From Mya arenaria (lineage: Eukaryota > Mollusca > Bivalvia > Myida > Myidae), in NCBI RefSeq assembly GCF_026914265.1, contig NC_069131.1, positions 5,526,501 to 5,590,500 of the forward strand: 64,000 nucleotides of DNA, given 5' to 3'. The notes under the pieces were generated by a model. The model was given only the letters and a program-made list of their open reading frames with translations, had not been told where the DNA came from and searched no databases. The translations under genes and the position numbers were made by a program. Below are positions 37,476-56,876 of the stretch, in pieces (the stretch's first letter is position 1; the number at the start of each line of letters is the position of its first letter).

Positions 37476-37479
37476 TTGG

Positions 37480-39234: not shown

Positions 39235-39239
39235 AAACA

Positions 39240-40462
39240 GGATACATGTACCATTAAAGCGATGCTATTCTCTGGACTACAAGCATGCATTGCAAAAATT
39301 TGTATTAGGAAAAATTTCAAACCAAAGAATCATGCGATCATTCTCACACTGTTTGTAAGAAGAATACATATAAAGGTGATATCAAGTACAGCAGAAAGGA
39401 ATAACAACAAAAAACTAAACTCTTTTTAATTGTGACATCATAATGGTCACCGGTAAGATGAAGTCATAGATTACTATGTGTTAATGACGTCATTTCCTAT
39501 TTAAACCAATATATAGTACCCCATTCAGTACCCAACGTGATTGAAAGTTTTTATCAGGAGATAACATTTTCCTCTTAAGAATTGGTTGGAAATTTAATTT
39601 TACATTTTTTTCATCACAATGAATACAAAATGACAAATTGTCATTTGAAAAAAAAACATTCTTGTCTATGAATTTGTTTAAAAACATGTGGAAGGATACT
39701 ATAAGTTCCATGGTCAGTAGGTAACCCGCGATATGGGATATTCAATGTAAAGGAAACCATATTGCGGTGGAGTGAAGCTCGAACCTAAATATGGATTCTT
39801 GCCCCCCCCCCATATTTCCAATACTATGTCACCTTCTAACCCCGTAATGTAAGTATAACGTTGACAACCTGTCCTCCTGTTTAAATGTTTTATTTATTCA
39901 TTGAAATATTCATCAAATCCGAATAAAGACGCCATTTTGTTGTAATTTAAATTTGGAAAATGGAAAAATGTGGTGTCACCGCGTGACCTGTCCTTGACCA
40001 ACAGCGGTGTTTCATAAATATTGGGAGTCGTGACATTTTTTTGACCAATAGAAATAGACCAATGTTATATTGATATCCCCATGTGTATTTAGGAGAGAAA
40101 AAATGTGTGATGGCTGTATTTAACTGGATATAAAGTATACAAGTAAATAAAAAACACGAAAAAAAATAAAATCTTTATGAATAAACATTATTCAGAATGG
40201 GTGGAGTGATTGATGATAATGAGCCCTTCTTAATCATTAAGCTAGTTACTTTAGGTCATTCAATTGACTTAGAAAACAACCTCATTGTCTAATTCATTGT
40301 CGACGTAAAATCTTATGCAGGGATTGTGCATCAGGTGAGTGACAGTAGGCTGAGGTAAAACCCAACTTGAAGAATGAAATTGTTAATGATTAAGGATAGC
40401 ACTTCATTTATACCTATCTGAAATTTCATTTGCTTAATTGTAGGATTGTTCTATTTTTGTTG
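39240..40462. other. Sequence without recognised genes
   Basis: A 73-codon minus-strand ORF (39,490-39,711) has no domain features. Short homopolymer runs occur near 39,783 and 40,159. No repeat structure is supported. Confidence 0.4.
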
Positions 40463-40466
40463 TTAA

Positions 40467-40667
40467 AGCTGCACTCACACAGATTGAAAGTATTGACAAC
40501 TTCTTTATTTTTTGTTTCCGAACGAGCCATTTTTTTGCGAAAATCCATGGAAACCAGTAATATAAGACTGCTGACAAAAAATCAGATCATAGATTCTTAT
40601 ACTTAAGTTCAAAAATTGATGTTTTATGCATTTTTTTAACCGTTAGTATCAGTTTAAGCCATTAAGC
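40467..40667. repeat. Left inverted terminal repeat / left half of MITE
   Basis: Starts AGCTGCACTCACACAGATTG after TTAA. Internal segments such as gatctgat, gcagtcttat, accagt and catcaattttt reappear in reverse complement at 54,491-54,648. A small internal palindrome (aaccgttagtatcagttt) lies near the inner end. Confidence 0.8.
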
Positions 40668-40716
40668 GCTACAACCCGATATCGGCGGTGAGTGGGTTTA
40701 GTCCCACGAGGGTGAA

Positions 40717-40868
40717 AATGAAAATGAAGAATGTGAAAATTGAGAATGAAAATTGAGAATGAAAATTGAGAATGAAAATTGAAAATGAAAATTGAAAATG
40801 AAAATTGAAAATCATCAGAGAAAATGAAAATTAAAAATGAAAATTGAAAATCATCAGAGAAAAAAATG
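40717..40868. repeat. GAAAAT simple array near the left end of the unit
   Basis: About a dozen units of gaaaattgagaat or gaaaatgaaaatt, with two longer units ending aatcatcagagaaaa. It lies just inside the left arm; the right end has only a short, related ccattttcattttt stretch. Confidence 0.85.
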
Positions 40869-40971
40869 AGCGTCTTGGTATCAGATACAAAAACAAAGTA
40901 ATTTATTTTTTATTTTTTGAAACAAGATAATTGTCACAATCAATCGAAAACTTTCTTCAACCACGTCAGGG

Positions 40972-41271
40972 TTAGCCGGCCAAGATTGCAAGATTTTCAA
41001 ATCGGTGGAAGAAACATGACAAACAATAGTTTCTCATTCGCACTTTTGGTGGCGTTTCATCAGCCTTACAATCATTACAGTACCACACATATCGAAAACA
41101 GTTTTGGCAGTAGCCAGCTGGAGGGAAAATGTTCAAAAGATCATGTCGTTGACAAGGTTCTAACGTAAAGACTCCAGCACAACACAATTGACATTCCCAA
41201 CAGAATCTTTTGAAATAATCATTGTACTGTAGTCCAGCAAACCCAACGATGTCAGTATATCGTTTTGCCAT
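40972..41271 (-). CDS. Small RING-like Cys/His protein, 99 aa
   Basis: An intronless ORF with ATG start. Ligands are spaced C27-x2-C30-x9-C40-x2-H43-x11-C55-x2-C58-x6-C65-x2-C68, which matches a RING-type cross-brace, followed by an extra C83-x2-C86 pair. A TATTTAAA sequence lies about 40 bases upstream of the start. If it is a true RING, it would be expected to recruit a ubiquitin-conjugating enzyme; that is inference. It lies inside the 14.2-kb unit, next to the RING gene at 41,527. No close family was recognised. Confidence 0.62.
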   Translation of the reverse strand: MAKRYTDIVGFAGLQYNDYFKRFCWECQLCCAGVFTLEPCQRHDLLNIFPPAGYCQNCFRYVWYCNDCKADETPPKVRMRNYCLSCFFHRFENLAILAG

Positions 41272-41526
41272 AGTTAGTGAAAAGTACAGTCACTGCTGTA
41301 TGTTTAAATAGTTTGAAGTACTCTAAAAAGCGTATACATTATTTCTCTAACTTGCATTCAACAACTTTGCTAACCAATGTTAGAAATTTGAGCTAACTAG
41401 CGTATTGCGGTTGTCTACAGCATAGCTGTGTGAATCAGAACTGGTAGTGTTTGAGTGATTAGCACAGTTCGCCTTACCGGAAAATGAAATAATCAGAAAG
41501 CAAAAATACAAATAATTGTTTACGAT

Positions 41527-41766
41527 TTATTCATAAATTTGATATTTTCCAATAACAACAGTTCTGCAAAAATAGCATTTACTAGTTTTGATTGAACATG
41601 CATGACAAGTCAAATGGCCACAAGGCGTAAACACAATACACTTTTTGTCCGTAACACAAATTTGACAAATGTTTTTTTCATCGTTTTGTTGTTGCAACTC
41701 TTGTCCAATTCTTCTTTCATGCTGAGGTGATGCCAAATTACGAAATATCTTGGATACTAATCGCAT
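41527..41766 (-). CDS. C3HC4 RING finger protein, 79 aa
   Basis: The RING is textbook: C34-x2-C37-x11-C49-x-H51-x2-C54-x2-C57-x6-C64-x2-C67, at the C-terminus as in inhibitor-of-apoptosis and many viral RING proteins. The start is placed at ATG 41,766 (MRLVSKIF). The longer frame, open to 41,829, runs back into the tRNA-Leu gene and would encode tRNA sequence. The start codon is only ~23 bases from the tRNA 3' end, on the same strand. Predicted role: ubiquitin E3 ligase (family knowledge). Substrates are unknown. Confidence 0.75.
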   Translation of the reverse strand: MRLVSKIFRNLASPQHERRIGQELQQQNDEKNICQICVTDKKCIVFTPCGHLTCHACSIKTSKCYFCRTVVIGKYQIYE

Positions 41767-41789
41767 GTCAGCAAAAATGCAAAATATAT

Positions 41790-41871
41790 TAGTACGGGTG
41801 GGGTTCGAACCCACGCGGACATTGTCCATTGGAACTTAAGTCCAACGCCTTAACCACTCGGCCACCGTACT
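41790..41871 (-). tRNA. tRNA-Leu (TAA anticodon)
   Basis: The minus strand folds as a type II tRNA. The acceptor AGTACGG pairs with CCGTACT, followed by discriminator A. The D-arm contains GGCCGAGTGGTTAAGGC, the anticodon loop is CTTAAGT, a long variable arm is present, and the T-arm is GGTTCGAACCC. The internal B box is intact and an oligo-T terminator follows within ~10 bases. The CCA end is not encoded, as usual for nuclear tRNAs. Confidence 0.95.
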
Positions 41872-42019
41872 TGGTGCAAATGAGCCGGGAAGTGCAGATT
41901 ATAAGAGCTTGAAATTATAATGCAAAGGCCATACGATCTGCCAAATTGCTCATGTATTCCTTACAAAACTTAACAGTTACACTTAGTTGAATGTACAATT
42001 GCCTTAAATGCAAAAGTAT

Positions 42020-42101
42020 TAGTACGGGTGGGGTTCGAACCCACGCGGACATTGTCCATTGGAACTTGAGTCCAACGCCTTAACCACTCGGCCACCGTAC
42101 T
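42020..42101 (-). tRNA. tRNA-Leu (CAA anticodon), intronless
   Basis: Identical to the tRNA at 41,790-41,871 except for one base: the loop is CTCAAGT, changing anticodon TAA to CAA. The 5' flank is also duplicated (the shared ataagagcttgaaattataa segment), giving a ~230-bp tandem repeat. Nuclear tRNA-Leu(CAA) genes commonly carry an intron; this one does not, consistent with origin by duplication from the TAA gene. An oligo-T terminator follows. Confidence 0.94.
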
Positions 42102-43140
42102 AGGTGCAAATGAACTGAGAAGTGAAGATTATAAGAGCTTGAAATTATAATGTAAAGGAAACATGAGTTTTTTCTTATGTTTGAAGATTTTGAAAAATAT
42201 GAGATGAAATTTAAAAATTGCTTTCACGTGAAAGTGAAGTGAGCTTTGCAGTTTGAAGCATTTCAAAAGACGAAAGTCTTCATGATGCTTAAATTTTGTT
42301 TCACTCAATCGTTGCATAACTATTGAAAATTTCTCATATACAACTAATGCTTCTAATTTCAGTTTATGTTTTATTCAAAATGTAAGCAGATAACAAAGTA
42401 CAAACATGCATAGTATTCATAACATTGCAAACATATCAATATACATAATTATACACAATTGTTTTCATGAAATCAAACACAAGCAAATGTTTACAATTGT
42501 TATAATGTCAAACATTCAATGTGAAAAGTATTTTTGTTATGCAATGTGGTCACTCCCTGTTTTTCATCCAGACTTGTGACTGGCATTGGTCAGGTTACCC
42601 ACGGCATCAGCGAGATCGGAAAACGGTAACTCTGAGCCAGAAACCTATTTTCCTAGTGTCATACACTACGCAAAATCAGCACCCATTAGAGGCCTTCCAG
42701 GCGACCTTCTACAATTTGTTACACCTATAATGTAGAGTGCTGGACTACTCGGGTGTAACAAACGGGGTATTGCTGACTCGTTGTAGGCACAACGCCGAAC
42801 TTATGGTCTCAGATACATGAATGGCTATACTGAAGCAAGAATCGAGTGCTACAGCCGCATAGATCGATCAGTGAACGATTGGAAATATGCGATCAACTTC
42901 AAGTACCCAAAACCACAAGCTAGGCTCGAAAACTCGTAGACTTATTTCTCTTTTGATCTAAGAGAAGGCTACAGAGTTCCCTTTCAAACACACCTCTTAA
43001 GCACATGGAGGCATATTTGCTCGCTTTACTTGCAGGCAGGAAATGCTAACTTTAATCTCAGAAAGCATTTCCTTTTATGTATCGCAACTTCTGAGCAAAG
43101 AAGCGATTGAAGTTTGAATTTTGAATTTTGAAAAAAACTG
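42102..43140. other. Non-coding stretch of the 14.2-kb unit
   Basis: No ORF above ~70 codons is credible. Base composition around 42,530-43,050 is less AT-rich than the surroundings, with no simple repeats, so a structured RNA or decayed gene is possible. Part of it (tgtggtcactccctgttttt) resembles the repeat at 43,260. Confidence 0.4.
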
Positions 43141-43392
43141 AGGCAACGCTAAAGGCAGTTACTCGACAAGGCACACTTAGGAATAAGCATCCGATTGCTT
43201 GTGTTTTCCTCTCTCTTTGTAAAGACTGTGTGGAGTGTCGGACCACAGCGATACATCGAGGTTGCCACTCCCTATTTTTCATTGCCTGTAGCGCGACATG
43301 ATGACCATGAGCGGTTCCTAGTATTGGTACTGTACATCACCTTACACCAATACTAAGCTGGTCTAACGACACCTCCATACTCATGGTAGCCT
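43141..43392. repeat. ~250-bp direct repeat, copy 1, with hairpin
   Basis: About 90% identical to 44,518-44,766 by eye. It contains a stem TAGTATTGGT / ACCAATACTA with a loop of ~17 bases near 43,319-43,356. The function is unknown; a small-RNA precursor or regulatory repeat is possible. Confidence 0.85.
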
Positions 43393-43803
43393 CTCAAATT
43401 TTACTTTTGCCAAAATGTTTTTGCGAAGTTGACAAAATCATTGCATTGCATCCAAGACCGTAGCATATTGAGCAATGAGAAACAAATCTCGTCGAAGCTA
43501 TACTTCTATGCTCATGCTACCAGACGCAAATAACAAATCACTTGCCAAAATCGCTTTTTGTATATGATCTAATGGCTATCACAGAGAATGATCGTATTCG
43601 TCAGGCGATGTCAAAGTGATCGACAACATGAGCTGGCCAGACTCAAGAGCGAAAAACTATGAGGTATCGCGACATACGGTTCTCATGTTCAAACCAGAAG
43701 GTCAAAAAACCTCTCAGATATTTTCTCTGTATCTCTGATGCACCAAGTTCATAGTGCGAGGAGAAATCTGAGAAGTTCAAACCCACTTTGGGCTCCCAGC
43801 AGA

Positions 43804-44106
43804 CTAACAGCACTTCTGAGCTAAGAGCTTGCTACTGGAATGACGAATATTGAAAAATGTGGAGCTTATATACCCGATGGCCAAAATTAATGCGCATCGC
43901 ATTATAATTGTGCATAAATGGTTAGGACTATTTTTTTTACCGTTTTTATTTATACGCTCATATGAAATAGTTCCAGAATTATCACTTGATTCCGCATTAT
44001 TATTGTACAAATGGCTCGAGATTTTGAAATCTGTGAATGAAGTAGTTTTTCTATGAAGATTATGTGAAATCAGTTTCAGTAAAATATCATTTTTTTCAAG
44101 TTTCAT
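43804..44106 (-). CDS. Possible small membrane protein, 100 aa (doubtful)
   Basis: A minus-strand ORF with a hydrophobic segment (LCTIIMRCALILAIGYI) near residues 63-79 and a polar N-terminal half. Its start overlaps the edge of the 162-bp tandem repeat. There is no recognisable domain, and a 68-codon ORF lies opposite. It is listed only because the unit is otherwise gene-dense. Confidence 0.2.
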   Translation of the reverse strand: MKLEKNDILLKLISHNLHRKTTSFTDFKISSHLYNNNAESSDNSGTISYERINKNGKKNSPNHLCTIIMRCALILAIGYISSTFFNIRHSSSKLLAQKCC

Positions 44107-44516
44107 GGACTTGGTGGAATTTGTGCATATAGCTTATGATTATGAGATCTGTGAGATTTGCTGCAAATGTCGATTTGTTGAATTTGATCATTATGAAGAT
44201 TTTATTTTTTTCATGAAATCTTGTGTGAACGCCAGTTTCAGTAAAATATCATTTTTTTCAAGTTTCATGGACTTGGTGGAATTTGTGCATATAGCTTATG
44301 ATTGTGAGATCTGTGAGATTTGCTGCAAATGTCGATTTGTTGAATTTGATCATTATGAAGATTTTATTTTTTTCATGAAATCTTGTGTGAACGCCAGTTT
44401 CAGTAAGATATCAATTTTTCATGTTTCATGGACTTGGTGTTTTTTGTGCATATAGCTTATGATTGTGAGATCTGAGAGATTTGCTGCAAATGTAGATTTG
44501 TTGAATTTGAAAATAA
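44101..44516. repeat. 162-bp tandem repeat, about 2.6 copies
   Basis: Units start at 44,101, 44,263 and 44,424 with tttcatggacttggtg. The first two are almost identical and the third is truncated and diverged. The unit length is divisible by three, so an ORF (44,105-44,455) spans two copies; no domain supports translation. Confidence 0.93.
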
Positions 44517-44517
44517 A

Positions 44518-44766
44518 GGCAACGCCAAAGGCAGTTACTCGACAAGGCACACTTAGGAAGAAGCATCCGATTGCCTATGTTTCCCCTCTCATTGTAAAGA
44601 CTGTGTGGACTGTCGGACCACGGCGATACAAAGAGGTTGCCACTCCCTATTTTTCATTGCCTGTAGCGTGACATGGTGAACATGAGCGGTTCCTAGTATT
44701 GGCACTGTACACCACCTTACACCAATACTAAGCTGGTCTAATGACACCTCCATACTCATGCTAGCC
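44518..44766. repeat. ~250-bp direct repeat, copy 2, with hairpin
   Basis: Partner of 43,141-43,392. The TAGTATTGG / CCAATACTA stem is preserved near 44,695-44,732 while the surrounding bases drift. Confidence 0.85.
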
Positions 44767-45291
44767 TTTAAATTACTTTTGCTAAATCATTTTGCTGAAC
44801 GAAAACATTGCCACATATCAATGTTCGGTCGTTCAAGAGGAATGTTTGTGATGAATGAAGTTTTGCACTTCGAAACCAAACTAAGAATGCAATGAGCCTA
44901 GTACATTTCACTTGTATTTCACAACGCATCTACATTCTAACATTTTTTTTAAAAATTGCTTGATCTTGCAATATTGATTTCAATTTTCATTCAAGCTGAA
45001 CTTTATAGACATTGACAAAACAACAGGCTTGCATCCTAAACCGCCGCATAAAGGACAGTGAGAAACGAATCTCGTCGACCCATGCTGGCACGAGCAAACA
45101 AATCATTTTGTCAACAGCATTTCACAAAAATGAAACATTTTAAAATGCAGTGCAAATTTTGCTCTTGTGCACACTATCAAAATGTTTACCATTTTACTAA
45201 GTTATGTTCCAACCAATATCGTAATCAATATGACAAGACCAAAGCTTAATAAATTTATGAATTACAAGCAGCATTACTGCTAAAATTTTGT

Positions 45292-45822
45292 TCAATCACA
45301 AATGTTCCTCGGTTTCAGCCGTGACCAAGTCTGGCTGTTTCTCATAAAAAAATGTAGTGAAAAACCGTTTGACTGTGGTTTCAATGAAAAAAATCGACAG
45401 ACCAAAATGTAACCAATTTTATGAAAAAAATGTGTTATCTTTCGTGAACAATACTTTGGATGGCCAAAAAAAATAACAACAGTACTCACAATAGCAAACA
45501 AGACCCGCGTTACTGGGGTAAGCAAGACAGCACAAACATTAAAAGCAAACAGATAAATCAGTATTTCTCCATTTAAATTTCATTTTCGAAATGATTTACT
45601 GTATGATAAATTTTCAATGTTCATGTAAAACACGAAATACAAGTGTTGGAGAATTACTGATAAACAAAAAGCAACGGTACAAAGCACATATAATACAAAC
45701 AATATTTTAAAACGAACAAGTGTGGATAGGTATCTTTTTTCAAATAAACAATGACATTTCAAAATAGATCGACGAATTCTGTCTGCTGTCTTCTGTCGGA
45801 TCCCCTGTGTATGACATCTCAT
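45292..45822 (-). CDS. Two possible small membrane-protein ORFs (doubtful)
   Basis: Two minus-strand ORFs, 45,580-45,822 (80 codons) and 45,292-45,525 (77 codons), each contain one hydrophobic segment, for example ILFVLYVLCTVAFCLSVI. Neither has a domain, and AT-rich DNA easily gives such readings. They could be cargo genes of the 14.2-kb unit or chance. Confidence 0.18.
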
Positions 45823-45950
45823 CTGAAAAAATGAAATGAAACGTGTAAAAGACGAAACATTCTTACATACAATAGCACATTAATGTTTACTCTGGTAAAT
45901 TTTGTTTCATTTATAACATTGGATTTTTACAAAAATGATAAATGCTTAAT

Positions 45951-46860
45951 TTCAAAACATATTAACCATTCTCTCAGGTTTGATTTACAAATGACAGAGC
46001 AGTACACTAACAACGTGCTTAAAATTATGATTTTTTTGACAACTTTTCAATTTTTTCAAAATTTTTGACTTTGGATTTTCACCATAGCGCATTCGCTTTT
46101 TAGCTATATACCTACCAAAGCGCATTTGCGTTTAAGCGATGTAGTTTTTTCACGCTGAGTACCCCCCTTATGAAACTTTTTTTTACATTGAATTTAGAAC
46201 GATTTAGTTGAATCTCAAAATTAAGCACACAAAGTGACGATGTACACATATTTTGGGGTGACGAGCTTTTTGGTTACCTCGCCCGACCAAACAAAAAGAC
46301 TTTTAGTATATATATAAGTCTTTTTGTTTGGCCGGGCGAGGTAACCAAAAAGCTCGTCACCCTAAATGATTTGTACATCGTCACCTGGTTTGCTTAAATT
46401 TGTGAGTCGATTTGTCATAAAGAGAGTAAAATGTATGATAAGATGCTTAGCATCTTCAAATAATTTGACATTCATCTTTTGGTTTGACAAATAAAATGAG
46501 TAAAATTTATGATAAACTGTTTAGCATCTGTAAATAATTTGACATTCATCTTTTGGTTTGACAAATAATAGAGTGAAATGTATGACAAATGCTAAATATC
46601 ATGAATCGATTCAAGACATGACATTTAGCATTTGGTTTGACAAATAATAAAGTGAAATGTATGATAAACTGCTTAGCATCTGTAAATAATTTGACGTTCA
46701 TCTTTTGGTTTGACAAATAATAGAGTGAAATGTTTGATAAATGCTCAGTGTCATGAATCGATTTGACACTTAGCATTTGGTTTGACAAAGAATAAAGTGA
46801 AATGTTTAATAAATGCTCAGTATCATGAATCGCTTTGATATTCATCAATTTGTTTTACTA
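45951..46860. repeat. Palindrome-bearing repeat block, copy 1
   Basis: Colinear with 47,857-48,600. Order: tcaaaacatattaaccattc, a catagcgcattcgc segment, the ~150-bp palindrome at 46,234-46,384, then degenerate ~70-bp units built on cttttggtttgacaaata. This resembles the homologous regions of some large DNA viruses in layout only. Confidence 0.85.
46234..46384. repeat. 151-bp near-perfect palindrome
   Basis: The inner stem of ~47 bp runs from ggtgacgagctttttggtta inward and mirrors 46,316-46,362 with a single mismatch (cgcccgacc versus cgcccggcc), around a loop of ttagtatatatat. The outer arms gtgacgatgtac and gtacatcgtcac extend the pairing. It could act as a replication origin, enhancer or cruciform, but no direct evidence exists. 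Confidence 0.93.
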
Positions 46861-47025
46861 ATGAACAAATAATGTCATATGGTTTGACAAAAAAGTAGAT
46901 TGAAATACCATTCATTTGTGATGTTTTACACTTGTGAAATGCAGATCGAATGCATTATTTTTGTGCATATTTAATATGTAACGCATACTTAATATCATTA
47001 CAAAACTTGAAACCTACAGCAATTT

Positions 47026-47409
47026 ATGATCTGTACAATGGAGAGACTTAACCGCAAAATTAAAAGAATTGCCATTCTTGAGGCTAGACTTGCTGTACTC
47101 AAAACAGAGTTACAGTCAGAACTGGAGCAGCTGAACAATTCCAATGACATGACAATGAACTATGGTTCAAAAACATTATCACCTGTACAAACCGAGGTTG
47201 AAGACTGGGGTGACTGCGTAAGGACTTCAGAAATCATCAGCGAGGAGGACTGGGAATCTGAAGCAAACAGGCAACCCTTCACTCTTGGTGGGACATTCTG
47301 CAAAACGAGAAAATCTACAAACTGGGAAAACAGATGCCCTGTTTGTTTCTCAAAAAACTGTGGACATAAAGTGAACAGATGTTTGTTCAGAGAAGCCGCA
47401 ACTCAGTGA
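47026..47409 (+). CDS. Coiled-coil plus Cys/His-tail protein, 127 aa
   Basis: An intronless ORF between the two palindrome blocks. Residues ~5-40 are charged with regular Leu/Ile spacing (coiled coil likely). The middle is acidic. The C-terminus has C-x2-C-x4-C-x-H-x4-C (CPVCFSKNCGHKVNRC), a possible zinc-binding knuckle. There are two candidate starts, at 47,026 and 47,038. An AATAAA lies ~95 bases after the stop. No known family was recognised. Confidence 0.6.
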   Translation: MICTMERLNRKIKRIAILEARLAVLKTELQSELEQLNNSNDMTMNYGSKTLSPVQTEVEDWGDCVRTSEIISEEDWESEANRQPFTLGGTFCKTRKSTNWENRCPVCFSKNCGHKVNRCLFREAATQ

Positions 47410-47856
47410 TTTAATATTCTACATTATTGTTGTATGTACCATATAATACTAGATGAACAAGTTAAAAAACTTTTTATCATATACTACTGGATAAACAAGT
47501 TAAAAAATAAATAAGCACTTTGTATTTTACCTCGTGTTGTTTTATTTCAATGTCCCGAAACCATTTAAACGAACAACTTCCACTGAGGTCAGACCAGCCA
47601 TACAGAGCTGAAAAAACAAAACATTTCTGTTGAAAAATGAAAACATCAATGAGTAAAATAAGAACAATACTTGTTCAATTTGTTTGCCACCAAAAACATG
47701 AATCTTAAATGATCTTGTTTTCCCTGCCAGATGATATACAATAAAACTTAACAATATAAGCTTCAACTCACTAATTTTCATTTACTAAATATGAACACTG
47801 GCTAATTAACTTCTATTAAGTCTTTGACCACCAAAGAATATTTGCAGTGAGTTATA

Positions 47857-48600
47857 AATGCTTTGTCTCAAAACATATTAACCATTCTCTCAGTTTTGAT
47901 TTACAAATGACAGAGCTGTTCACTAAAACAGTGCTTAAAATCATGATTTATTTCACATCTTTTCAATTTTTTTCAAAATTTTCAAAATTTTTGACTTTGG
48001 ATTTTCACCATAGCGCATTCGCGTTTTAGCTATATACCTACCAAAGCGCATTTGCGTTTAAGCGATGTAGTTTTTTCACACTGGGTACCCCCCTTATGAA
48101 ACTTTTTTTTACATTGAATTTAGAACGATTTAGTTGAATCTCAAAATTAGGCACACAAAGTGACGATGTACAAGTATTTTGGGGTGACGAGCTTTTTGGT
48201 TCGCTCGCCCGGCCAAACTAAAACACTTTTAGTATATATATAAGTCTTTTTGTTTGGCCGGGCGAGGTAACCAAAAAGCTCGTCACCCTAAATGATTTGT
48301 ACATTGTCACCTGGTTTGCTTAAATTTGTGAGTCAATTTGTCATAAAGAGAGTAAAATGTATGATAAATGCTTAGCATCTTCAAATAATTTGACGTTCAT
48401 CTTTTGGTTTGACAAATAAAATGAGTAAAATTTATGATAAACTGCTGAGCATGTGTAAATAATTTGACATTCATCTTTCGGTTTGACAAATAATATAGTG
48501 AAATGTATGACACATGCTAAATATCATGAATGGATTTGACACTTAGCATTTGGTTTGACAACTGAAAGAGTGAAATGTATGACAAATGCTAAATGTCATG
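47857..48600. repeat. Palindrome-bearing repeat block, copy 2
   Basis: Partner of 45,951-46,860, displaced by ~1.9 kb. The two blocks flank the 127-aa ORF. The degenerate ttggtttgacaaat units continue to about 48,600. Confidence 0.85.
48160..48310. repeat. 151-bp palindrome, second copy
   Basis: Same design and length as 46,234-46,384, with more mismatches in the left arm (tcgctcgcccggccaaacta) while the right arm is almost unchanged. The outer arm reads gtacattgtcac. Confidence 0.9.
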
Positions 48601-49800
48601 AATCTGACACATAGCTGTAATTTTGCTACCATAATGTGAAATAAGTACAAAGAGCAAAATCAAATCATGTTGGTTCAGTGTTTCAGTGTATTAAAGTACC
48701 AAGATGAGTTAACTTTACTGTTCATTGTAACTTTGAGATTTGTTTCTGATGAAATTTGGTGAAATTACTTGTTATTGACAGAGCAGAACACACTGCATAT
48801 TGGGTGAGCTTCAGGTTATATAGGCTAGGTTACTCCTCACAACTCTGAAACAAAACATTTTATCAACAAAACTGCACATATTGCTTGTTAGTTTTTTACA
48901 TTTTTCATTCCATTAAAAGCATGGCTAAGTGCACATTTCATCCACATCAACAATGTTGAAATAATCCTGAAAACAAAATACTTCCTACATACAAACAGAA
49001 ACAGAAAAACTATTCACATGCAGAAGGTATTATGTTCCCAACATTTCTTATCATTCACAACAGGAACAAAATTATGCATTTATGGCATTGGTAGATATCA
49101 AACACAAACTGAAAATTTATCTAATAGCAGTTCAATGTAATAAATCAAACACAGTGTCTGTTATTAGATAAATTATCAGTTTATAAAAATTATTCCAAGA
49201 ATATTTCCAAACAGACTAAGCACTGAGATTATGATATGACAGTTCATTTCATGGAATTAATTTTCAGTGATTTTACTTACTTGTAAATGTACTTTCTTGG
49301 GTACTGCCTTCAACCATTTTGATCACCAGCTTTCTGACACACAGGATGACTGCATCTGAACTGCCGTCTCTGGTTTAAAAAAAATAATTTTCAACATATT
49401 TTTCAAACAAACAAATAGAAGAAGATATTTATCAATCTCGCATGATTTGTCATTTCTTATTTCTGTCAGTTTGGTCCCTAAACAAAGTTAAAATCATTCA
49501 AAATATGACATAAACAAGACAAGAGATATGAATTAACACCGCTTACTATGTTTTTCAACATATCTAGCCGAGAATTAAAGTTTCTAAAATCGGCTTCGAG
49601 AATGTTCGAAACATTCTAAAACGAGCTGGGAGCAATTTCTTTTGACAGAAGTTTTTATGGAATTCAATAGATACATCGACAAAACTTGCTGGTAATATGA
49701 TACATCATATATTTAGACACAATTTCTCATAAAACTTTTAAGCATGCATGTCATACTTACCGCAGGAAAGCTGGAAATACGACCTTCACAATTTATTTTT

Positions 49801-49865
49801 CAAGATGGCCGACCAGCGCACAGCGAGAACTCTGCAATATGACGTCATACATATCACGTCATATC
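49801..49865 (-). promoter_or_regulatory. CRE and YY1-type promoter-like sequence
   Basis: A perfect CRE palindrome TGACGTCA lies at 49,840-49,847, with a second cacgtcat nearby. On the minus strand about 30 bases further comes CGGCCATCTTG (49,801-49,811), a YY1-type initiator-region motif, then a strong splice donor at 49,761. The order suits a minus-strand start around 49,820-49,830. Confidence 0.4.
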
Positions 49866-50593
49866 ATTCCATGAATTGCATTATTTATTTATTTTTTAAA
49901 CTTTTACGAAAATAAAGAAAATACACTCATTAAAAATAATTTAAAATTATCTTAATCATGTATTATGTATCGTTTTATGAAATTAAACATTAGGAAAAAA
50001 AAAGTTTGTTCATTTTCAGAAAAACGAAATCGAAAGTAGAAATATTTTCTGAAATTGGAAATGTTTAAAACCTCGTAAAATCATTTATATCTCTTGCATA
50101 TGCATAAACCCGGCTTGATTCAATCGCGAACACATTATAGAAACTATAACTACCAAGGTCGTACCTTCAACCACAGAAAATATCCCAAATTTTACACACA
50201 AAGAGTATTGTTTACATGGTTCAACCGTATCCAAGTGAATACGACAGACAACACTTTCCCTTATAATAATCAGCTCAGTATAGCTTGTACCGAAAATCGT
50301 AACATTATTCTGTGATTGTTTTACTTTATTTCATGTTTTATTTTGCTTAAGTATCGTACTTTGTAGCATTTTACGATACATTCTGTGTATCTTTGAGGAG
50401 TTATGCATAGCGATTTGCACATATATATATGACTATATGACCATTACTCGTTTGATAACTATGAGCAAGCATAGTTGTTCTTGAAGCTTAAGTGATTCCA
50501 ACTAGATTACTATAGATAAACACAATAAAACACGAACAGTTCATACATTTTATTTTGTTACTAATCATTGTCTGTTCATCACTCAATTTATTG

Positions 50594-50983
50594 TTAACAA
50601 CGTTTTGGCACAAACTGTCTCCCACGCCTGGCGAAGAACTGGCGAAGTGCTTCGTGATTCTCATTTCTCTCTAAGTCTCTGCTACTGAGCTTTTCAACAA
50701 CTTTGTAAGTTTTGTCAACACTCGACGAGTCTTCTTGCACCAAACACACCAAACAGGGGTACAGTTCAGGGCACTGATGGCTTGGGGCTCTCTGTTCTGC
50801 TTTCTGTTCAGCCTCTCCGTTTTTGAAACAAATCAAACACGGATATAGTTTCGGACACGTGTGGATTTCAATTGCCATATTGATGTTTGCATTCAATTGC
50901 ACACTGTCCATGTTTTTCTGTTTTGCATCAGACCTTCTGAGCAACTTCTTCAAACACGTTTTGATGGTTTTCTTGAATCCCAT
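50594..50983 (-). CDS. Basic protein with two HxC..CxxC repeats, 129 aa
   Basis: Starts MGFKKTIKTC with a Lys/Arg-rich N-terminus. Two near-identical motifs follow: H41-x-C43-x5-C49-x2-C52 and H69-x-C71-x5-C77-x2-C80, each reading CPxLYPCLxC. Each could bind one zinc ion. The C-terminus is charged and helical-looking. TATATAAAC lies ~60 bases upstream, and AATAAA overlaps the stop region. It is part of the minus-strand cargo series. No known family was recognised. Confidence 0.65.
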   Translation of the reverse strand: MGFKKTIKTCLKKLLRRSDAKQKNMDSVQLNANINMAIEIHTCPKLYPCLICFKNGEAEQKAEQRAPSHQCPELYPCLVCLVQEDSSSVDKTYKVVEKLSSRDLERNENHEALRQFFARRGRQFVPKRC

Positions 50984-51294
50984 AATTTGTATATACTAGA
51001 TCAGTAGGTTTTGACAAGTATGACATGAGAAGAAAAGATAAGTTTATATATGAACTATATTCGTTCCACTCATTGCATTATTTTAAGCCATGGACCATGC
51101 AATCTACAATGCTAGGTACAGTGCTTGCTACTATGTTACTATGCTTCTATTTTTCAATCGAGATAAAACAAACAATCAAATTGCATTTCAACGCATTTAT
51201 TCAAAGTTAAAACATCAAAACAATTGTTTGAACCTTTTCATTCGGAAAGCACTTAATGAAGTATCATCATGTTTGAGCGGATTGAAAACTAATG

Positions 51295-51645
51295 TCAATT
51301 CTTGTTTTCGCTCACAAAAATACTTGGTTCAATTTCGTCAATTTTTACTTCCTCGTCTACGGTCTCAATGTCTTCAAAATTATCACTATCATAACAGTAA
51401 CCGTCACAAACGCAGCAATTTCTCATATAACAAACTGCCCCGTCTGGGTTGTCATCTTGCATGGATTCGATTTCGCTCGATTTTTGTTCTTCAGCATCTC
51501 GCAAATAATCTTCTGCCATCTCCATCATTTTTTCATATTCATTGATATCATCCATGGGTTGCTGAGAAGAAGATTCGCTTTTTTGCTCGTTTTCACTGGT
51601 GTTCTCACAAGGCGTTGTTTGCTGTGTCGATGCTTGACTGGACAT
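51295..51645 (-). CDS. Acidic Cys-containing protein, 116 aa
   Basis: A Ser/Gln/Glu-rich N-terminal half is followed by a Cys cluster near residues 72-83 (CYMRNCCVCDGYC) and a strongly acidic tail (DNFEDIETVDEEVKIDEIE). A TATAAG box lies ~45 bases upstream. It is intronless and divergent from the coiled-coil gene at 51,781, with ~135 bp between starts. The function is unknown; an acidic activation domain is one possibility. Confidence 0.5.
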   Translation of the reverse strand: MSSQASTQQTTPCENTSENEQKSESSSQQPMDDINEYEKMMEMAEDYLRDAEEQKSSEIESMQDDNPDGAVCYMRNCCVCDGYCYDSDNFEDIETVDEEVKIDEIEPSIFVSENKN

Positions 51646-51780
51646 AATTGTTTGAGAATGTGTATGACAAGTAACAAATTTTCAGCCCTTATAATAAGAA
51701 TAAAATAATTCACTAGTAAATCGCATTCCATGATATAAATCGAAAATAAAACTGACATTGAACTCGCTCACAATAGAAAT

Positions 51781-52239
51781 ATGACGGACATAAGCAACCT
51801 TAATTTACAAATTACCGGCTTCGTAGCGAGACTATGTATGGGTGATAACAAGCACGAGTCTACGTTCAAAGAAATCGTCTCGATACTTGACAATATCGAA
51901 AAAACATTTCTGCAAAACAAACTGGAAACGACCGAGTATCGCAAGAAATGTGGCGCACTACAGCAAAAGGTGTTCAGGTTGATCAGAGAGAACGATCGGT
52001 ATAAGCAAACTCATGTGCACAACTCGAATACGGACGATAGTCAACTATTGCAGGACGAAGTTACACGCTTGACATTGAATCTGTCACAGCTGACTGCGGA
52101 AAACAATCAGCTTAAGCAAAATAACACGGCATTGGAAGACGAAGTTTTGCGCTTGAAATCTCAAACAGACAACCTGCAATCCTTAGACGAAGCTGCCTGT
52201 ATGGAACTATTCAACGAAAACACTCAAGATTTTTCATGA
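51781..52239 (+). CDS. Coiled-coil protein, 152 aa
   Basis: The C-terminal two thirds (residues ~60-140) show regular Leu heptads with Asn/Glu/Lys spacers, as in VTRLTLNLSQLTAENNQL, typical of a leucine-zipper coiled coil. TATAAAT at 51,734-51,740 lies 41 bases before the ATG, and AATAAA follows the stop at ~52,282. It is the only well-supported plus-strand gene in the right half of the unit. No basic DNA-binding region is obvious, so dimerisation or scaffolding is more likely than a bZIP factor. Confidence 0.62.
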   Translation: MTDISNLNLQITGFVARLCMGDNKHESTFKEIVSILDNIEKTFLQNKLETTEYRKKCGALQQKVFRLIRENDRYKQTHVHNSNTDDSQLLQDEVTRLTLNLSQLTAENNQLKQNNTALEDEVLRLKSQTDNLQSLDEAACMELFNENTQDFS

Positions 52240-52324
52240 ATTACTTTACTTCTGCCACTTACAAGTGAATATTACGAAATTCAATAAAAAGCAATTTCAA
52301 AGCATTCGTTTTTTTATGTTTATT

Positions 52325-52693
52325 TTATGTTATCCTAAGTCTTAGAAACGCAAATCTCAGAACGTTGTGCTTAAACTGTTTTCTTGCGCTTTGCTTGATT
52401 CTGGCCAGATAATCTTTTCCTTCTGAGTTACCCAATCTTTTGTAGTAACGTTTTATGTTTCTTCTATTCATTTTTTGTGCCGGGTGGTTTATCCAACAAG
52501 CGGGACAAAAGCCGTTGTATTTATCAAAACAGCTTGGACACGCGGAATGTTCGAATGCACATTGTTTCATAACGAGCAAGAGATAGTCAATGTTACTGTA
52601 GCCACCGCACCAATGACAAGCTCTGAAACGTTTTCCGAGTCTCTTATCATACGAAATACATTTTGAGTTTTTTTTACCGTTGTTGTGAGCCAT
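52325..52693 (-). CDS. RING-like protein, 122 aa (paralogue of 53,884-54,288)
   Basis: The Cys/His pattern is C26-x2-C29-x15-C45-x3-H49-x2-C52-x2-C55-x7-C63-x2-C66, with the hallmark CHWCGGYSNIDYLLLV and CPACWINHP. A Lys/Arg-rich C-terminus follows. Its paralogue shares SYDKR-GKRFR and most of the finger. ATAAAATAAA lies at the 3' end for polyadenylation. It may act as a ubiquitin ligase or nucleic-acid-binding zinc protein; neither is proven. Confidence 0.7.
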   Translation of the reverse strand: MAHNNGKKNSKCISYDKRLGKRFRACHWCGGYSNIDYLLLVMKQCAFEHSACPSCFDKYNGFCPACWINHPAQKMNRRNIKRYYKRLGNSEGKDYLARIKQSARKQFKHNVLRFAFLRLRIT

Positions 52694-52989
52694 ACTTTAT
52701 TTAAAAGGTTCAAAAATATTTCACTAATATAGTGTCAAGTCAATTTCATTCAGTTTATGTAATTCAAATGTTTTGACAACAGTAACATGGCAAGTCTTAA
52801 CCGTTGGTGACACAATAAACTATTGTCTATATTTGCTGCGTTCTACACATTTACGAAAACACAAGACAAAGAATATTTCATTTTTTCATGTTTATTTTAC
52901 AATTGAATCGTTATCTACAAAAACTTGAAACATCATAACACACTAAATGTCTCCAAAGTCCTGATACTCAGAGTCCCCAGGTTCATTGT

Positions 52990-53805
52990 TCATAAGTACG
53001 GTTTTATCGTTTCCCACATATAGCCTATGTGCTTCAACAGAAAATCGTCTAGAATCTCAGGTTCAGCATAATCGTTTGAACATAATCGTCTGTGTCTCAG
53101 TGCTGTCCTCGCTTCTTCCGTCTCACAATACTTGATCTCTCTGTACATTTCAACGCACCTCCTGATCTGGTCTGCCTCATATTTTGACTCCTGAATATTG
53201 TATATTTGTTCAAGTATTTTCGCAACTTTATCATGATCCAAAGGGGAAGCCGGCGAAGAATTTTCAAGATCATCGCTAAAATTCCCATTCTCGATATCGT
53301 CATCATCTGAAAGGACAAGATCCATACAGTCATTGTCCTTGTCAAACATACCAACTCTCATCGATTCGGTTTGCTGGGGGGAGGTATTGCTGTATTCTAT
53401 TTTCTGTCTTTTTACAATGTTATCCATCTCACCATTTTCCACTTTTCTTTTCATTCCCGCATTGGAACTGGAATCGTTTAAATCCATCTGCGGTTTGAAC
53501 ATTTCATAATAATTAGTGAACATTTCCTTATCCAACATATCAACACTCATCGATTCGGTTTGTTGCGGTAAGGTATTGCTGTTGTCTGATTTCTGTGTTT
53601 TTACGGTGTTAGCCATCTCATCCATCTCACAGTTCATGGCATTGGAATCATTCAAATCCATCTTCTGTCTGTACAATTTACAGTCGTCGCACTGGCAGTC
53701 CTCAACTTCGTAAAACTTACAGGCATAATAATTCAATCTGAAAAACTTACAGTCGTCACACTGGCAGTTGTTTGTCATGATCTCTTTGCAGTTTGGTTTT
53801 GCCAT
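52990..53805 (-). CDS. Repeat-containing acidic protein with twin CQCDDCK motifs, 271 aa
   Basis: The start is chosen at ATG 53,805 (MAKPNCKEIM), 56 bases after a clear TATA box; the frame extends upstream only through a TTG. Two N-terminal CQCDDCK motifs are followed by two ~50-residue repeats (TESMSVDMLDKE / TESMRVGMFDKD). Next come a basic VKRQKIE segment that could be nuclear targeting and an acidic run DDDDIENGNFSDD. The C-terminus is helical and charged. It is flanked by the two RING-like paralogues. Family unknown. Confidence 0.62.
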   Translation of the reverse strand: MAKPNCKEIMTNNCQCDDCKFFRLNYYACKFYEVEDCQCDDCKLYRQKMDLNDSNAMNCEMDEMANTVKTQKSDNSNTLPQQTESMSVDMLDKEMFTNYYEMFKPQMDLNDSSSNAGMKRKVENGEMDNIVKRQKIEYSNTSPQQTESMRVGMFDKDNDCMDLVLSDDDDIENGNFSDDLENSSPASPLDHDKVAKILEQIYNIQESKYEADQIRRCVEMYREIKYCETEEARTALRHRRLCSNDYAEPEILDDFLLKHIGYMWETIKPYL

Positions 53806-53860
53806 GATCTCTTTGCAGTTTGGCTTTGCAGTATTTTGCAATGTTTTGCAGTCTTTTGCT

Positions 53861-53870
53861 TTTATACCCT
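53861..53870 (-). promoter_or_regulatory. TATA box of the 271-aa ORF
   Basis: The minus strand reads AGGGTATAAAAGC, a consensus TATA box, 56 bases upstream of the ATG at 53,805. This is the clearest core promoter in the cargo. Confidence 0.6.
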
Positions 53871-53883
53871 TTTGAACTTTGCA

Positions 53884-54288
53884 TTACAAAAAGGCGAACA
53901 TCAACACGTCACTTTTGAACTTTTCCCTTGTGCTTTTCTTAATGGTGGCGAGGTAATCATGCCTCATCTCTCTCAATAACCAGTCGTTAGTTTCTATTTT
54001 ACCCAATTTCTTGTAGTATCGTTTCCTTTCCTTAATGTGTGCTAACGCAACTGGATGGTTCAACCAACAAGCAGGACAAGAGCCATTGTATTTATCGAAA
54101 CAGCTTGGACACGCGGAATGTTCGAACACACAGTTTTTCATAACGAGTAGGAGATAGTCAATGTTACTGTAACCACCACACCACTCACAACATCGAAAAC
54201 GTTTTCCGAATCTCTTATCATACGAATATTTTGACGTGTTTAACATGTTTGACATGTTTGACATGTTTGGATCTGTATCGGCTGTCAT
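53884..54288 (-). CDS. RING-like protein, 134 aa (paralogue of 52,325-52,693)
   Basis: Start taken at ATG 54,288; the frame is open further upstream only from a GTG. After a Met/Ser/Asn-rich leader comes SYDKRFGKRFRC and the finger C34-x2-C37, C53-x3-H57, C60-x2-C63, C71-x2-C74, spaced exactly as in its paralogue. The C-terminus is basic and longer than the paralogue's in the middle (KIETNDWLLREM). It is the last gene before the right end of the unit. Confidence 0.7.
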   Translation of the reverse strand: MTADTDPNMSNMSNMLNTSKYSYDKRFGKRFRCCEWCGGYSNIDYLLLVMKNCVFEHSACPSCFDKYNGSCPACWLNHPVALAHIKERKRYYKKLGKIETNDWLLREMRHDYLATIKKSTREKFKSDVLMFAFL

Positions 54289-54360
54289 AGTGTATGTTTG
54301 TGTGTTTGTATGTGTGCATGAGTTCTTTGTAGCCACCACAAATAATGGAATACAGAAAAC

Positions 54361-54406
54361 GGGGGTGAAAATAAGGGGGGGGGATTTTCAACAAGGGGGG
54401 GGGGGC
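54361..54406. other. Poly-G runs near the right end of the unit
   Basis: Three plus-strand G runs (about 5, 9 and 11) occur within 46 bases. Such clusters can form G-quadruplexes or reflect slippage; nothing comparable is seen at the left end. Confidence 0.6.
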
Positions 54407-54490
54407 CTTTTCTATCAGCCTATTTCCCCAAGTCCATTCCATTTCCATTTTCATTTTTCAAACATCAAAACAAAACTTCCCAGTTTGCTG

Positions 54491-54648
54491 CATCAATTTT
54501 TAAACATAAATATGAAAATCTAAGATCTGATATTTTATCAGATATCTTATTATTGGTTTGCACATATATATTTACGCAATAAAATGCTCTTTCCAAAAAA
54601 AAAAAAAAAAAAAAGCTGTTAAAATAGTCAATCTGTGGGAGTGCAGCT
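54491..54648. repeat. Right inverted terminal repeat / right half of MITE
   Basis: Reverse-complement partner of 40,467-40,667, ending GGGAGTGCAGCT before TTAA. It contains a ~21-base A run, where the left arm has a short AT-rich stretch. Confidence 0.8.
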
Positions 54649-54652
54649 TTAA

Positions 54653-56532
54653 GGGCTCATTATTTCTTAGTCTAAACAAGTTGATGTTCAAATTAAGAGT
54701 CTTCTTATCCATAAACATCTATTAAAACAAGTTTTTAAAAAAGAAGGTGTTTTGAAAATATCAAAATTGAATTAAGGAAAAGAATTTCATATTTATCAGG
54801 TTTGAACTGACATTTCCAAATGCTTTACCCTTTGGAACAATCCATGTGGTAACTAAGAAATATGTCAAGTCCATGATATACGCATTAGCACAAAATTAAT
54901 CAAGCACAATTTTGATCACAATTCACACACTGTGCAAGCATGTCAAAACATGGCCATGTTAAAATTGCAAAATTTCCTTCTGATTGAAAAAAAAATCACA
55001 GACTGTCAGACTAAATTACTGACACTCCTTTTCTATAAAAGTTCATGCTGTCTTCACAAATAAATTGAAATAACGAATAAGGGTAATGTAACATTCTGCC
55101 AAAGGGGGAAGTGCATTCATAGTATGTGGATGTCCTGGATTAAATATGCAAATTAACATACCAGGTCTCTGTTTGGAGGGAGAATATATGTAGATAAAAG
55201 GGTTATGCATGATTTTCTCTGAAGGGATCTGTTGGCCTTGAACATTTCAGTAATATGGCTTGTTTTATTGATCTTTTTTAGACATACATGTTTGATGCTT
55301 GATAGGCATACCAATGAGAATGATTTGCCCAAAATTGCGACAGAACAATTTCAGGGGCGTAGCAAGCGTTACACACTTACGCACATGCGTAACATCAATT
55401 TGAAAAATGCAAAAAAATGGTCAAACATGGCATCAAAGTCGAGGGTTATGTTTTGACATCAGAATAAAACCTTAAAGGGTAGATCAGCTATAGAAAGCAT
55501 TGTTTCTCTGTGCTAGATAGCTAACACAGCCTTAAAAATCACTTAAAAAATATTCCGTGGGGAGCAGTCACCCCCCTAACCTCCTACGGTTACAGGGATT
55601 CCCCATCCCATAGCCTCTCACATTTAGTACAGCCTGGCTACACCCTTGAATTTAATTAATTGCCAAAAAATGTCAAAATCCTGTCAACATTCTAATATTT
55701 TGATTTTTTTTTCATTGAGTAAGACCCTTTTGAGCTATTTAAACACTGTAAATATCCGTAAAGCTATATGCATGTATACAATATCGATATCCCCAGCATG
55801 CACAATTAAGTTATGCATTATCTTTTACCATTGTTAATTTTAACAAACAAGAAGATACTGTATTTTACACTTACCTAAAAAATGTGTAGACAATGATAGA
55901 GAATAATAAGTGGCAGATTTCAAATCAAGGCATTTAAGGCTCACCAGGGGCTTAGCACCATCCAGATAATACAGACAGGCTAGCTCCATGTCCTAATGCC
56001 AGGATCATTTATAGTAACTTGATCTTGTTGAAAAGTTTAATACTTGACTAGTCCAAATAAACAGCAACTCCAGATCTTGGACAAGTTTTGTTTTGGCGAG
56101 TCTTCATGTCCACATCCAACTTTTTCTCCTAGCTAAGAATGACATTTCAAGCACTAAGTTTATTTAGTTCAAATATTGTACATTGAATGATTTTTTACCA
56201 TTTTTGATATGGCACGTCACATAGTGAACACATCTATAATTTTCGACTTGATGTATATTGAGCTTCAAGATGACGCGCATCAGCTAGATAGGTCCAAAAT
56301 GGCAATGCTATGTTGACAGAAGCTGATCGGAATTTAAGTGTTAAATGAAACGCTTGTGTAATTATACACACTTGTGTGATTAAACAATGATATTGGCTCA
56401 AGATAAATTATGTGAAACTTTCGTGTTCCTATTTTGCAATGCAATGTTTAATATTGAAGTGTTGTTACAGTTGAAGAAAATATTTTACTATGGTAGGAAT
56501 CAGATCAACATGGCATAAAGGGAACCAAATTA
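54653..56532. other. Sequence without recognised genes
   Basis: AT-rich, with short ORFs (up to 74 codons at 55,232-55,456) lacking domains or splice context. No repeats were detected by eye. Confidence 0.4.
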
Positions 56533-56876
56533 TGCACTGGTCAGTCAATTGTAACCACGCCCACCCCCCCACCCCCAGATCTTGGGAATAGCGGGGACTT
56601 GGACTTTCAGTACAGCCAACACCGGCTAGATTCCATGCCATGCGGAGACGAACAGTTGGTAAAATCCCCACCAAAGTCCCTGCACCCCGGGGACTCTAGG
56701 CAAGGCCAATTACCCGCTGTATTTAAAACAGACAAAACCACCGCATTCACCCGGCAATGTGTAGTTGGACTAGGCAATGTGGGGCGACCTGACAAGGATA
56801 AACACGACCCATTTCACCCGCTATTCCCCGTATATCCCCGGACCTGGGTTGGCCGTGGTTACAATTGACTGGTGCA
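56533..56876. mobile_element. ~345-bp GC-rich MITE
   Basis: The ends tgcac..agtcaattgtaacc and ggttacaattgactggtgca are inverted repeats. The interior is clearly GC-richer than the surroundings (accccggggactc, cccgtatatccccgg). No coding capacity is supported; ORFs on both strands simply reflect the lack of stops in GC-rich DNA. Confidence 0.75.

What the first reader, a model, noticed from the sequence alone, without database searches (positions are those of the whole stretch)
40467..54648. A 14.2-kb TTAA-flanked unit loaded with small zinc-finger genes, tRNAs and palindromes
The sequence shows matching ends (AGCTGCACTC inside TTAA), inverted arms of ~160-200 bp, and a gene style unlike the intron-rich host loci around it: short intronless ORFs with TATA boxes, paralogous RING-like proteins, tRNA genes and palindrome repeats. 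TTAA duplication is known for piggyBac and Kolobok transposons, and piggyBac-herpesvirus fusions (Teratorn) exist in fish. Whether this is a comparable transposon-virus hybrid, a fragment of an integrated nuclear DNA virus (malacoherpesviruses also encode several RING proteins), or a new non-autonomous element is inference.
Basis: partly seen in the sequence, partly recalled or inferred. Interest (0 to 1): 0.92.

Follow-up and report, generated by a model that had tools for sequence, protein, structure and literature searches.

The report
Solo terminal repeat of clam herpesvirus
The block of small zinc-finger genes is not a TTAA transposon but, most likely, a lone copy of the long end-repeat of a herpesvirus that has integrated at dozens of places in this clam's chromosomes, much as retroviruses leave solo LTRs behind.

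Summary
The TTAA ends, inverted arms, small RING/zinc-finger ORFs, two tRNA-Leu genes and palindromes are real, but the unit is nested. The TTAA arms are halves of an abundant ~369-bp MITE-like repeat inside a ~7.3-kb host repeat; 7 of 7 other copies read carry it uninterrupted and give the empty site. The foreign DNA is 40668/40670-54489 (13.8 kb). Relatives (40 left-end places scored, window included; main rows 86-100% identical) lie on 14 of 18 contigs with the same sharp ends. Of 23 copies checked, 11 continue rightward into one shared sequence, 7 are preceded by another, none has both, 5 (this one included) have neither: the pattern of a long direct terminal repeat (TR) with solo copies. 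Beyond it lie a BIR-RING IAP, protein kinases and, within an array of the same repeat, a herpesvirus terminase (PF02499, 8e-15). Best reading: solo TR of an endogenous molluscan herpesvirus, analogous to solo-DR HHV-6 and the 18-22 kb direct TRs of IcHV1/CyHV3; not piggyBac, not Teratorn. Virus family and integration mechanism are untested.

The parts
40668..54489 (+). The inserted unit: solo long terminal repeat (TR) of an endogenous herpesvirus-like element (13.8 kb; left end shared with other copies starts at 40669-40670, TACAACCCGATATCGG; right end ..CAGTTTGCT at 54489)
   Evidence: empty sites in the 7 other MITE copies read; 34 of 40 left-end rows begin at window 40669-40670; 31 of 69 match rows end at window 54486-54493, only 2 go past, 36 end earlier
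40463..40667 (+). Left half of the TTAA-flanked MITE-like repeat (target); GC at 40666-40667
   Evidence: 93-97% to seven uninterrupted copies
54490..54652 (+). Right half of the same MITE; GC at 54490-54491 repeats the left junction (2-bp duplication or microhomology)
   Evidence: 93-97%
35871..58945 (.). ~7.3-kb interspersed host repeat that contains the MITE; in the window it is interrupted at about 36656-37471, 40668-54489 and 57185-58288
   Evidence: comparison with two other copies, L009/L010 and L011/L012
40972..41271 (-). g1, 99-aa Cys-rich ORF; identical protein in copy L034
   Evidence: no Pfam match
41527..41766 (-). g2, 79-aa RING (C3HC4) ORF; the matching ORF in copy L034 is 202 aa, so shortened here
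   Evidence: Pfam PF13920 2e-10 on the longer reading 41527-41829
41790..41871 (-). tRNA-Leu (TAA)
   Evidence: ARAGORN and Rfam
42019..42102 (-). tRNA-Leu (CAA); read by eye it differs from its neighbour only in the anticodon base
46210..46408 (.). near-perfect palindrome with AT-rich centre (origin-like; inference)
47026..47409 (+). g3, 127-aa ORF with C-terminal Cys/His cluster
   Evidence: no Pfam match above cut-off
48134..48336 (.). second copy of the palindrome
50594..50983 (-). g4, 129 aa, CHY zinc-finger similarity below the Pfam cut-off; frame intact in 17 of 18 copies
51295..51645 (-). g5, 116 aa acidic; frame intact in 17 of 18 copies
51781..52239 (+). g6, 152 aa coiled coil, TATAAA at -47; frame intact in 17 of 18 copies, pooled pN/pS 0.13
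52325..52693 (-). g7, 122 aa RING-like, paralogue of g9 (dN/dS 0.21); frame found in 17 of 18 copies with a varying C-terminus (107-136 aa)
   Evidence: only 4 of 18 share the window's exact stop; relative P0001
52990..53805 (-). g8, 271 aa, TATAAA at -61; aligned full length in only 4 of 18 copies, 3 intact
   Evidence: relative P0002
53884..54288 (-). g9, 134 aa RING-like; aligned full length in only 3 of 18 copies, 3 intact

Best explanation
[quoted passage not shown] Complete elements are built TR - unique region (U) - TR in direct orientation, sometimes in tandem, with TRs of about 14-24 kb. The TR carries small ORFs without introns (RING and other zinc proteins, some with TATA boxes), tRNA-Leu genes in some variants and origin-like palindromes; U carries an IAP, kinases and a herpesvirus packaging gene. 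In this locus an element inserted into a MITE that already sat in a 7.3-kb host repeat, and recombination between its two TRs then removed U and one TR. Shown: the multi-copy family, the sharp ends, the shared continuation of the ends, the IAP and kinase genes in U, the terminase in an array of the same TR, the empty site. Inferred: that solo copies arose by TR-TR recombination, that the TR genes act early, the herpesvirus family, and the way the element integrates.
For: Empty sites at 7 of 7 loci read. Family with sharp ends on 14 of 18 contigs. End classes in 23 copies: 11 with the right end continuing into CTGTGTAAACGCGC.., 7 with the left end preceded by ..GCGCAAAAGCTTAA, 0 with both, 5 with neither. 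TR-U-TR order: at C10:8894158-8945055 a TR, then 14.7 kb of U with a 309-aa BIR-BIR-RING IAP (BIR 3.9e-33) and two protein kinases (1.6e-25, 7e-32), then the left-approach motif and TACAACC of the next TR. In the C9 array (TR traces at 55712468, at 55755167, ending at 55824964, and at 55883573-55899797) L077 runs from TR into the same U start at its base 3980, and L078 further on encodes a terminase: PF02499 8.2e-15, 55.1 bits against cut-off 22.8, and solved HSV-1 terminase UL15 at 9.6e-5 for the whole sequence. L078 and L079 are 90% and 96% covered by ORFs >=100 aa and share 6.3 kb at 99.9%. TR genes look constrained: g7/g9 dN/dS 0.21 at dS 1.2; g4, g5, g6 frames intact in 17 of 18 copies each.
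Against: No element was read end to end, and 55779901-55799999 between the L077 junction and L078 was not read. The U lengths inferred (14.7 to ~59 kb) are below known herpesvirus genomes, so those units may be deleted or the pairing wrong. Only one core herpesvirus gene passed a curated cut-off; in the UL15 match no single stretch passes on its own; DNA polymerase is weak (PF03104 0.0037, below cut-off, in a split frame) and no capsid family matched. Gene density is not uniform: U pieces L075, L076, L077 are 38-44% ORF, about the same as host piece L013 (39%), though above L009/L010 (0-4%). Two TR copies on C3 face each other instead of being direct. Target duplications are inconsistent: 2 bp here and at C4:60.96, 3 bp at C12:21.10, 5 bp (CTTTA) at the C10:8.9 pair, 5-6 bp at C10:11.42, none at the C12:59.4 and C9:59.7/60.2 pairs, undecidable in (TA)n at C12:60.05 (by eye). 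99.9% identical array units could in part be an assembly duplication. No relative was found in viral contigs.
Confidence: 0.85

Rival explanations
1. The 14-24 kb unit is a mobile element in its own right that also sits at the ends of integrated herpesviruses (a transposon-virus association like Teratorn, with the unit moving alone).
For: Five of 23 copies have flanks of their own on both sides; copies are dispersed and some nearly identical.
Against: No transposase or integrase among the 10 window ORFs scanned; no consistent target duplication; 18 of 23 copies run into a shared sequence on exactly one side, as expected of terminal repeats, not of free insertions.
Confidence: 0.1
2. A TTAA cut-and-paste transposon (piggyBac- or Kolobok-type) with captured cargo; the MITE would be its internal-deletion derivative.
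For: TTAA and AG-ending inverted arms match the Kolobok rule (PMC6004289, passages).
Against: MITE plus its outer host flanks recur at the 7 other loci read without cargo; cargo copies elsewhere lack these arms at their ends, and 1 of 16 host-side left flanks ends in TTAA.
Confidence: 0.01
3. A host segmental duplication carrying fast-evolving RING immune genes.
For: Bivalves have many IAP/RING genes (recalled; the listing includes an oyster IAP-expansion paper). Host piece L013 is as ORF-rich as parts of U.
Against: Sharp identical ends in dozens of copies; linked terminase.
Confidence: 0.03

Closest known systems
Endogenous HHV-6 and its solo-DR form (PMC7444522, abstract and passages)
   Same: Herpesvirus genome with terminal direct repeats flanking U, integrated in the germline; recombination between repeats leaves a solo repeat.
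   Different: HHV-6 integrates into telomeres through telomere-like repeats; solo-DR was seen in nine subjects and may trace to one event. Here there are dozens of copies at scattered sites and the TR is longer (DR length recalled).
Ictalurid herpesvirus 1 / Cyprinid herpesvirus 3 (PMC3230846, passages)
   Same: Long direct terminal repeats (18 kb, 22 kb) that carry immediate-early genes; IcHV1 loses one repeat when its genome becomes endless in cells.
   Different: Fish viruses; not known as multi-copy chromosomal elements (recalled).
OsHV-1 / AVNV, Malacoherpesviridae (PMC3623871, abstract and passages)
   Same: Herpesviruses of bivalves, 38.5-38.7% GC; RING and IAP genes (recalled).
   Different: Genome built on inverted repeats (7.6 and 10.2 kb in AVNV), not long direct TRs; not integrated (recalled).
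BelcheriHV-1, integrated malacoherpesvirus in lancelet (PMC12373286, abstract and passages)
   Same: Invertebrate-type herpesvirus integrated in an animal chromosome.
   Different: Described as one 150-kb provirus in three blocks; no solo terminal repeats or high copy number in the passages read.
Teratorn (PMC10175614, passages) and AciHV-3 of sturgeon (PMC12031113, passages)
   Same: Endogenous herpesviruses with repeats at the ends; AciHV-3 has ten host junctions.
   Different: Teratorn has a piggyBac transposase and CCYT/TTAA ends, not found here; AciHV-3 has telomere-like ends.

Membership tests
Herpesvirales | Herpesvirus terminase ATPase/nuclease subunit | tested here: met
   L078:9148-9900(-): PF02499 8.2e-15 above cut-off; UL15 structure 9.6e-5 whole-sequence. 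It lies in the C9 array of the same TR, not in the window.
Herpesvirales | Herpesvirus-fold major capsid protein and triplex | tested here: inconclusive
   No Pfam match in the 10 ORFs given from L077-L079; only pieces of U were read.
Herpesvirales | B-family DNA polymerase | tested here: inconclusive
   PF03104 0.0037, 17.1 bits, cut-off 23, L075:7026-7391
Malacoherpesviridae | Clusters with OsHV-1/HaHV-1 in core-gene trees | not testable with these tools
   No malacoherpesvirus record was reached; viral contigs gave no relative of the terminase.
Malacoherpesviridae | Inverted-repeat genome as in OsHV-1/AVNV | tested here: not met
   End classes and the C10 element indicate direct TRs; one facing pair on C3 is the exception. 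AVNV structure from PMC3623871.
Virus with long direct terminal repeats | Each repeat copy joined to U on one side, to host on the other | tested here: met
   18 of 23 copies one-sided, 0 two-sided, 5 solo; TR-U-TR at C10:8894158-8945055
piggyBac / Teratorn | CCYT-starting inverted ends at TTAA and a piggyBac transposase | tested here: not met
   MITE ends start AGCTGC; TR ends TACAACC and ..TTTGC(T); no transposase among the 10 ORFs scanned
Kolobok (the MITE only) | TTAA target and AG terminus; Kolobok transposase in trans | tested here: inconclusive
   TTAA and AG met; transposase not searched

The most novel reading that the evidence does not exclude
A lineage of molluscan herpesvirus has become a germline-amplified genomic element of a clam: dozens of insertions, many recent, at scattered chromosomal sites, tandem arrays, and solo long terminal repeats that keep intact regulatory-type genes (RING proteins, tRNA-Leu) after the virus has been looped out, so that herpesvirus TRs behave like giant LTRs.
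Probability: 0.6. Interest if true: 0.93.

Novelty: new variant of a known kind. Interest (0 to 1): 0.86.

Why it matters
Few germline herpesviruses are known to me (HHV-6, Teratorn, sturgeon AciHV-3, a lancelet provirus). A high-copy, recently active one in a bivalve, with LTR-like solo repeats and recoverable empty sites, would make herpesvirus endogenization, looping-out and dating directly testable by comparing individuals, and would show a molluscan herpesvirus with fish-virus-like direct terminal repeats. The TR genes left behind are candidates for co-option by the host. Searches of the paper library for malacoherpesvirus/endogenous, endogenous herpesvirus/bivalve/terminal repeat and Mya arenaria/herpesvirus showed no report of this among the papers listed (20 of 5,247, 12 of 257 and 15 of 26); subscription papers and preprints are not held. 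Rosani et al. 2023 on invertebrate herpesviruses in global datasets is not held and may cover it.

Tried and rejected
Rejected: TTAA transposon with cargo; host gene cluster. Led nowhere: structure prediction of g9 (pLDDT 52) and g8 (pLDDT 34), too poor for a fold search; solved-structure searches with g9, g8 and a polymerase-like piece (best E 0.39 to 0.96); viral-contig scans for g9, g8, g1, g6, the MITE end and the terminase; protein search for the 79-aa RING (no candidate). g9 and g8 found one database relative each, P0001 and P0002; P0001 has the C-terminus of genomic copies such as L017, so it may be this same family. GC and CpG do not separate the unit from host DNA. PHROG matches were weak (best 0.0013, coiled coil); Rfam gave only the tRNAs. 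A genome count of terminase was asked nine times and never answered.

Counts and dropped rows: genome searches score only the best candidates (40 of 715, 33 of 3680, 40 of 206), so copy numbers are lower bounds; the window is included in each. Of the 40 MITE matches, 7 others were read. In one search, small side pieces fall to 65% identity; '86-100%' is for main rows. End classes use 22 copies chosen because both ends had been scored, plus the window; array-internal copies were not sampled, which can explain why none had both extensions; 'own flank' means not shared among these 23. For C13:16.96 the script picked a wrong place; its right end is taken. pN/pS pools 18 copies that are not independent; g5 had 32 nonsynonymous and 0 synonymous differences. 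One search counted g7 broken in 14 of 18 because it demanded the window's stop; one search finds the frame in 17 of 18. A g8 internal-repeat figure was computed in a wrong frame and is not used.
Full report
What was claimed and what is there. TTAA lies at 40463-40466 and 54649-54652, with 14,182 bp between. The unit holds 12 ORFs of at least 100 aa against 1.5 expected, one clear RING protein, two tRNA-Leu genes found by ARAGORN and Rfam, and two palindromes with 96-98-nt arms.

The TTAA arms are not the unit's own. A genome search with the right arm gave 40 scored matches out of 715 candidates; eight were cut out, one of them the window. The seven others carry the left arm (40463-40667) directly joined to the right arm (54490-54652) as a 366-369-bp element, and the host sequence outside TTAA is homologous too, at 92-98% in the long pieces. 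The MITE sits in a ~7.3-kb interspersed repeat that in the window spans 35871-58945 minus three stretches (two other copies compared). So seven paralogous empty sites put the foreign DNA at 40668-54489, with GC on both sides.

The unit is a family. A 4.1-kb piece of it matched 69 stretches from 33 scored candidates; 31 stretches end at window 54486-54493, 36 end earlier, and only the window's own and one AT-rich match go past. The left-end probe gave 40 scored places, 34 starting at 40669-40670. Together they lie on 14 of 18 contigs. In the 22 copies whose ends could be paired, lengths run from about 15.4 to 24.3 kb; the window copy has 13.8 kb. Identities of main rows run from 86 to 100%.

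The unit is a terminal repeat. I read the flanks of those 22 copies. Eleven have a left flank of their own and the same right continuation (CTGTGTAAACGCGCAG..). Seven have the same left approach (..GCGCAAAAGCTTAA) and a right flank of their own. Four, and the window, share neither. None has both. This is what direct terminal repeats around a unique region U, plus solo repeats, would give. At C10:8894158-8945055 the order TR-U-TR is seen: L075 leaves the TR, and L076 ends with the left approach and the next TR's start.

U is viral. In the C10 element it encodes a BIR-BIR-RING IAP, two protein kinases and a weak B-polymerase exonuclease match. In the C9 array, L077 runs from TR into the same U start; L078 and L079, further along, are 90% and 96% ORF, and L078 encodes a kinase and a herpesvirus terminase subunit (PF02499 8.2e-15; HSV-1 UL15 structure 9.6e-5 over the whole sequence). 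The other U pieces (L075, L076, L077) are 38-44% ORF, which host piece L013 (39%) about equals, while L009 and L010 have 0-4%; density alone therefore proves little, the terminase more. L078 and L079 share 6.3 kb at 99.9%, about 48.6 kb apart: tandem and recent units, or in part an assembly duplication.

The repeat's genes. The paralogous RING-like genes g7 and g9 have dN/dS 0.21. g4, g5 and g6 keep their frames in 17 of 18 copies, and g7 in 17 of 18 with a variable C-terminus; g8 and g9 aligned fully in only 4 and 3 of 18. In copy L034 two RING ORFs have 237 and 202 aa; in the window the second is reduced to its RING next to the tRNA block. ARAGORN finds no tRNA in L034, so the tRNAs mark a TR variant. 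In IcHV1 the 18-kb direct repeats hold immediate-early genes (PMC3230846, passages); that the RING genes play this role here is inference.

Mechanism. Shown: integration into a MITE, empty sites, family, TR-U structure, terminase in an array of the same TR. Inferred: after integration of TR-U-TR, recombination between the TRs left one. This is the solo-DR route described for HHV-6 (PMC7444522, abstract and passages). How the element integrates is open: target duplications read by eye vary from none to 5-6 bp, and no transposase or integrase was seen among the 10 window ORFs scanned.

Host. 1.216 Gb in 18 contigs fits Mya arenaria, 1.22 Gb and 17 chromosomes (PMC10663159, passages); this is inference. 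If so, the assembly rests on PacBio reads and Hi-C, but the reads were not available here.

Limits. No element was read end to end; the terminase and the window unit are linked through the array and shared ends, not through one continuous sequence. Inferred unit sizes are below those of known herpesviruses, so the arrays may be deleted. The two C3 copies face each other. Virus family placement was not testable.

Noticed in passing
41790-42102: Two tandem tRNA-Leu genes that, read by eye, differ only in one anticodon base (TAA against CAA), with T-runs downstream: an anticodon switch after duplication inside a viral repeat. 18 of 40 left-end rows (window included) match through this block in one piece; tRNAs were not rescanned in those copies.
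   Followed up: partly
C3:89258388-89340799 of G000: Two TR copies in opposite orientation with their U sides facing each other, 45 kb apart: inversion or an inverted-repeat isomer.
   Followed up: no
L077:5122-6033(-): 303-aa U-region ORF with weak similarity to Viral_Rep (PF02407, 0.0057, below cut-off), the replication protein of small circular DNA viruses.
   Followed up: no
54373-54406: G-tract, short AT stretch, G-tract near the right end of the unit, reminiscent of herpesvirus pac1 packaging signals (recalled).
   Followed up: no
46210-46408 and 48134-48336; also L077:6146-6964 and 8484-9277: Palindrome-bearing repeats of the TR recur inside U.
   Followed up: no
57119-57751: LINE-like ORF tail (by eye) overlapping a 1.1-kb stretch that is absent from two other copies of the 7.3-kb host repeat; no Pfam match.
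   Followed up: partly
10001-18000: Strong GC skew (0.35-0.56) over 8 kb, tandem repeats at least in its first part.
   Followed up: no
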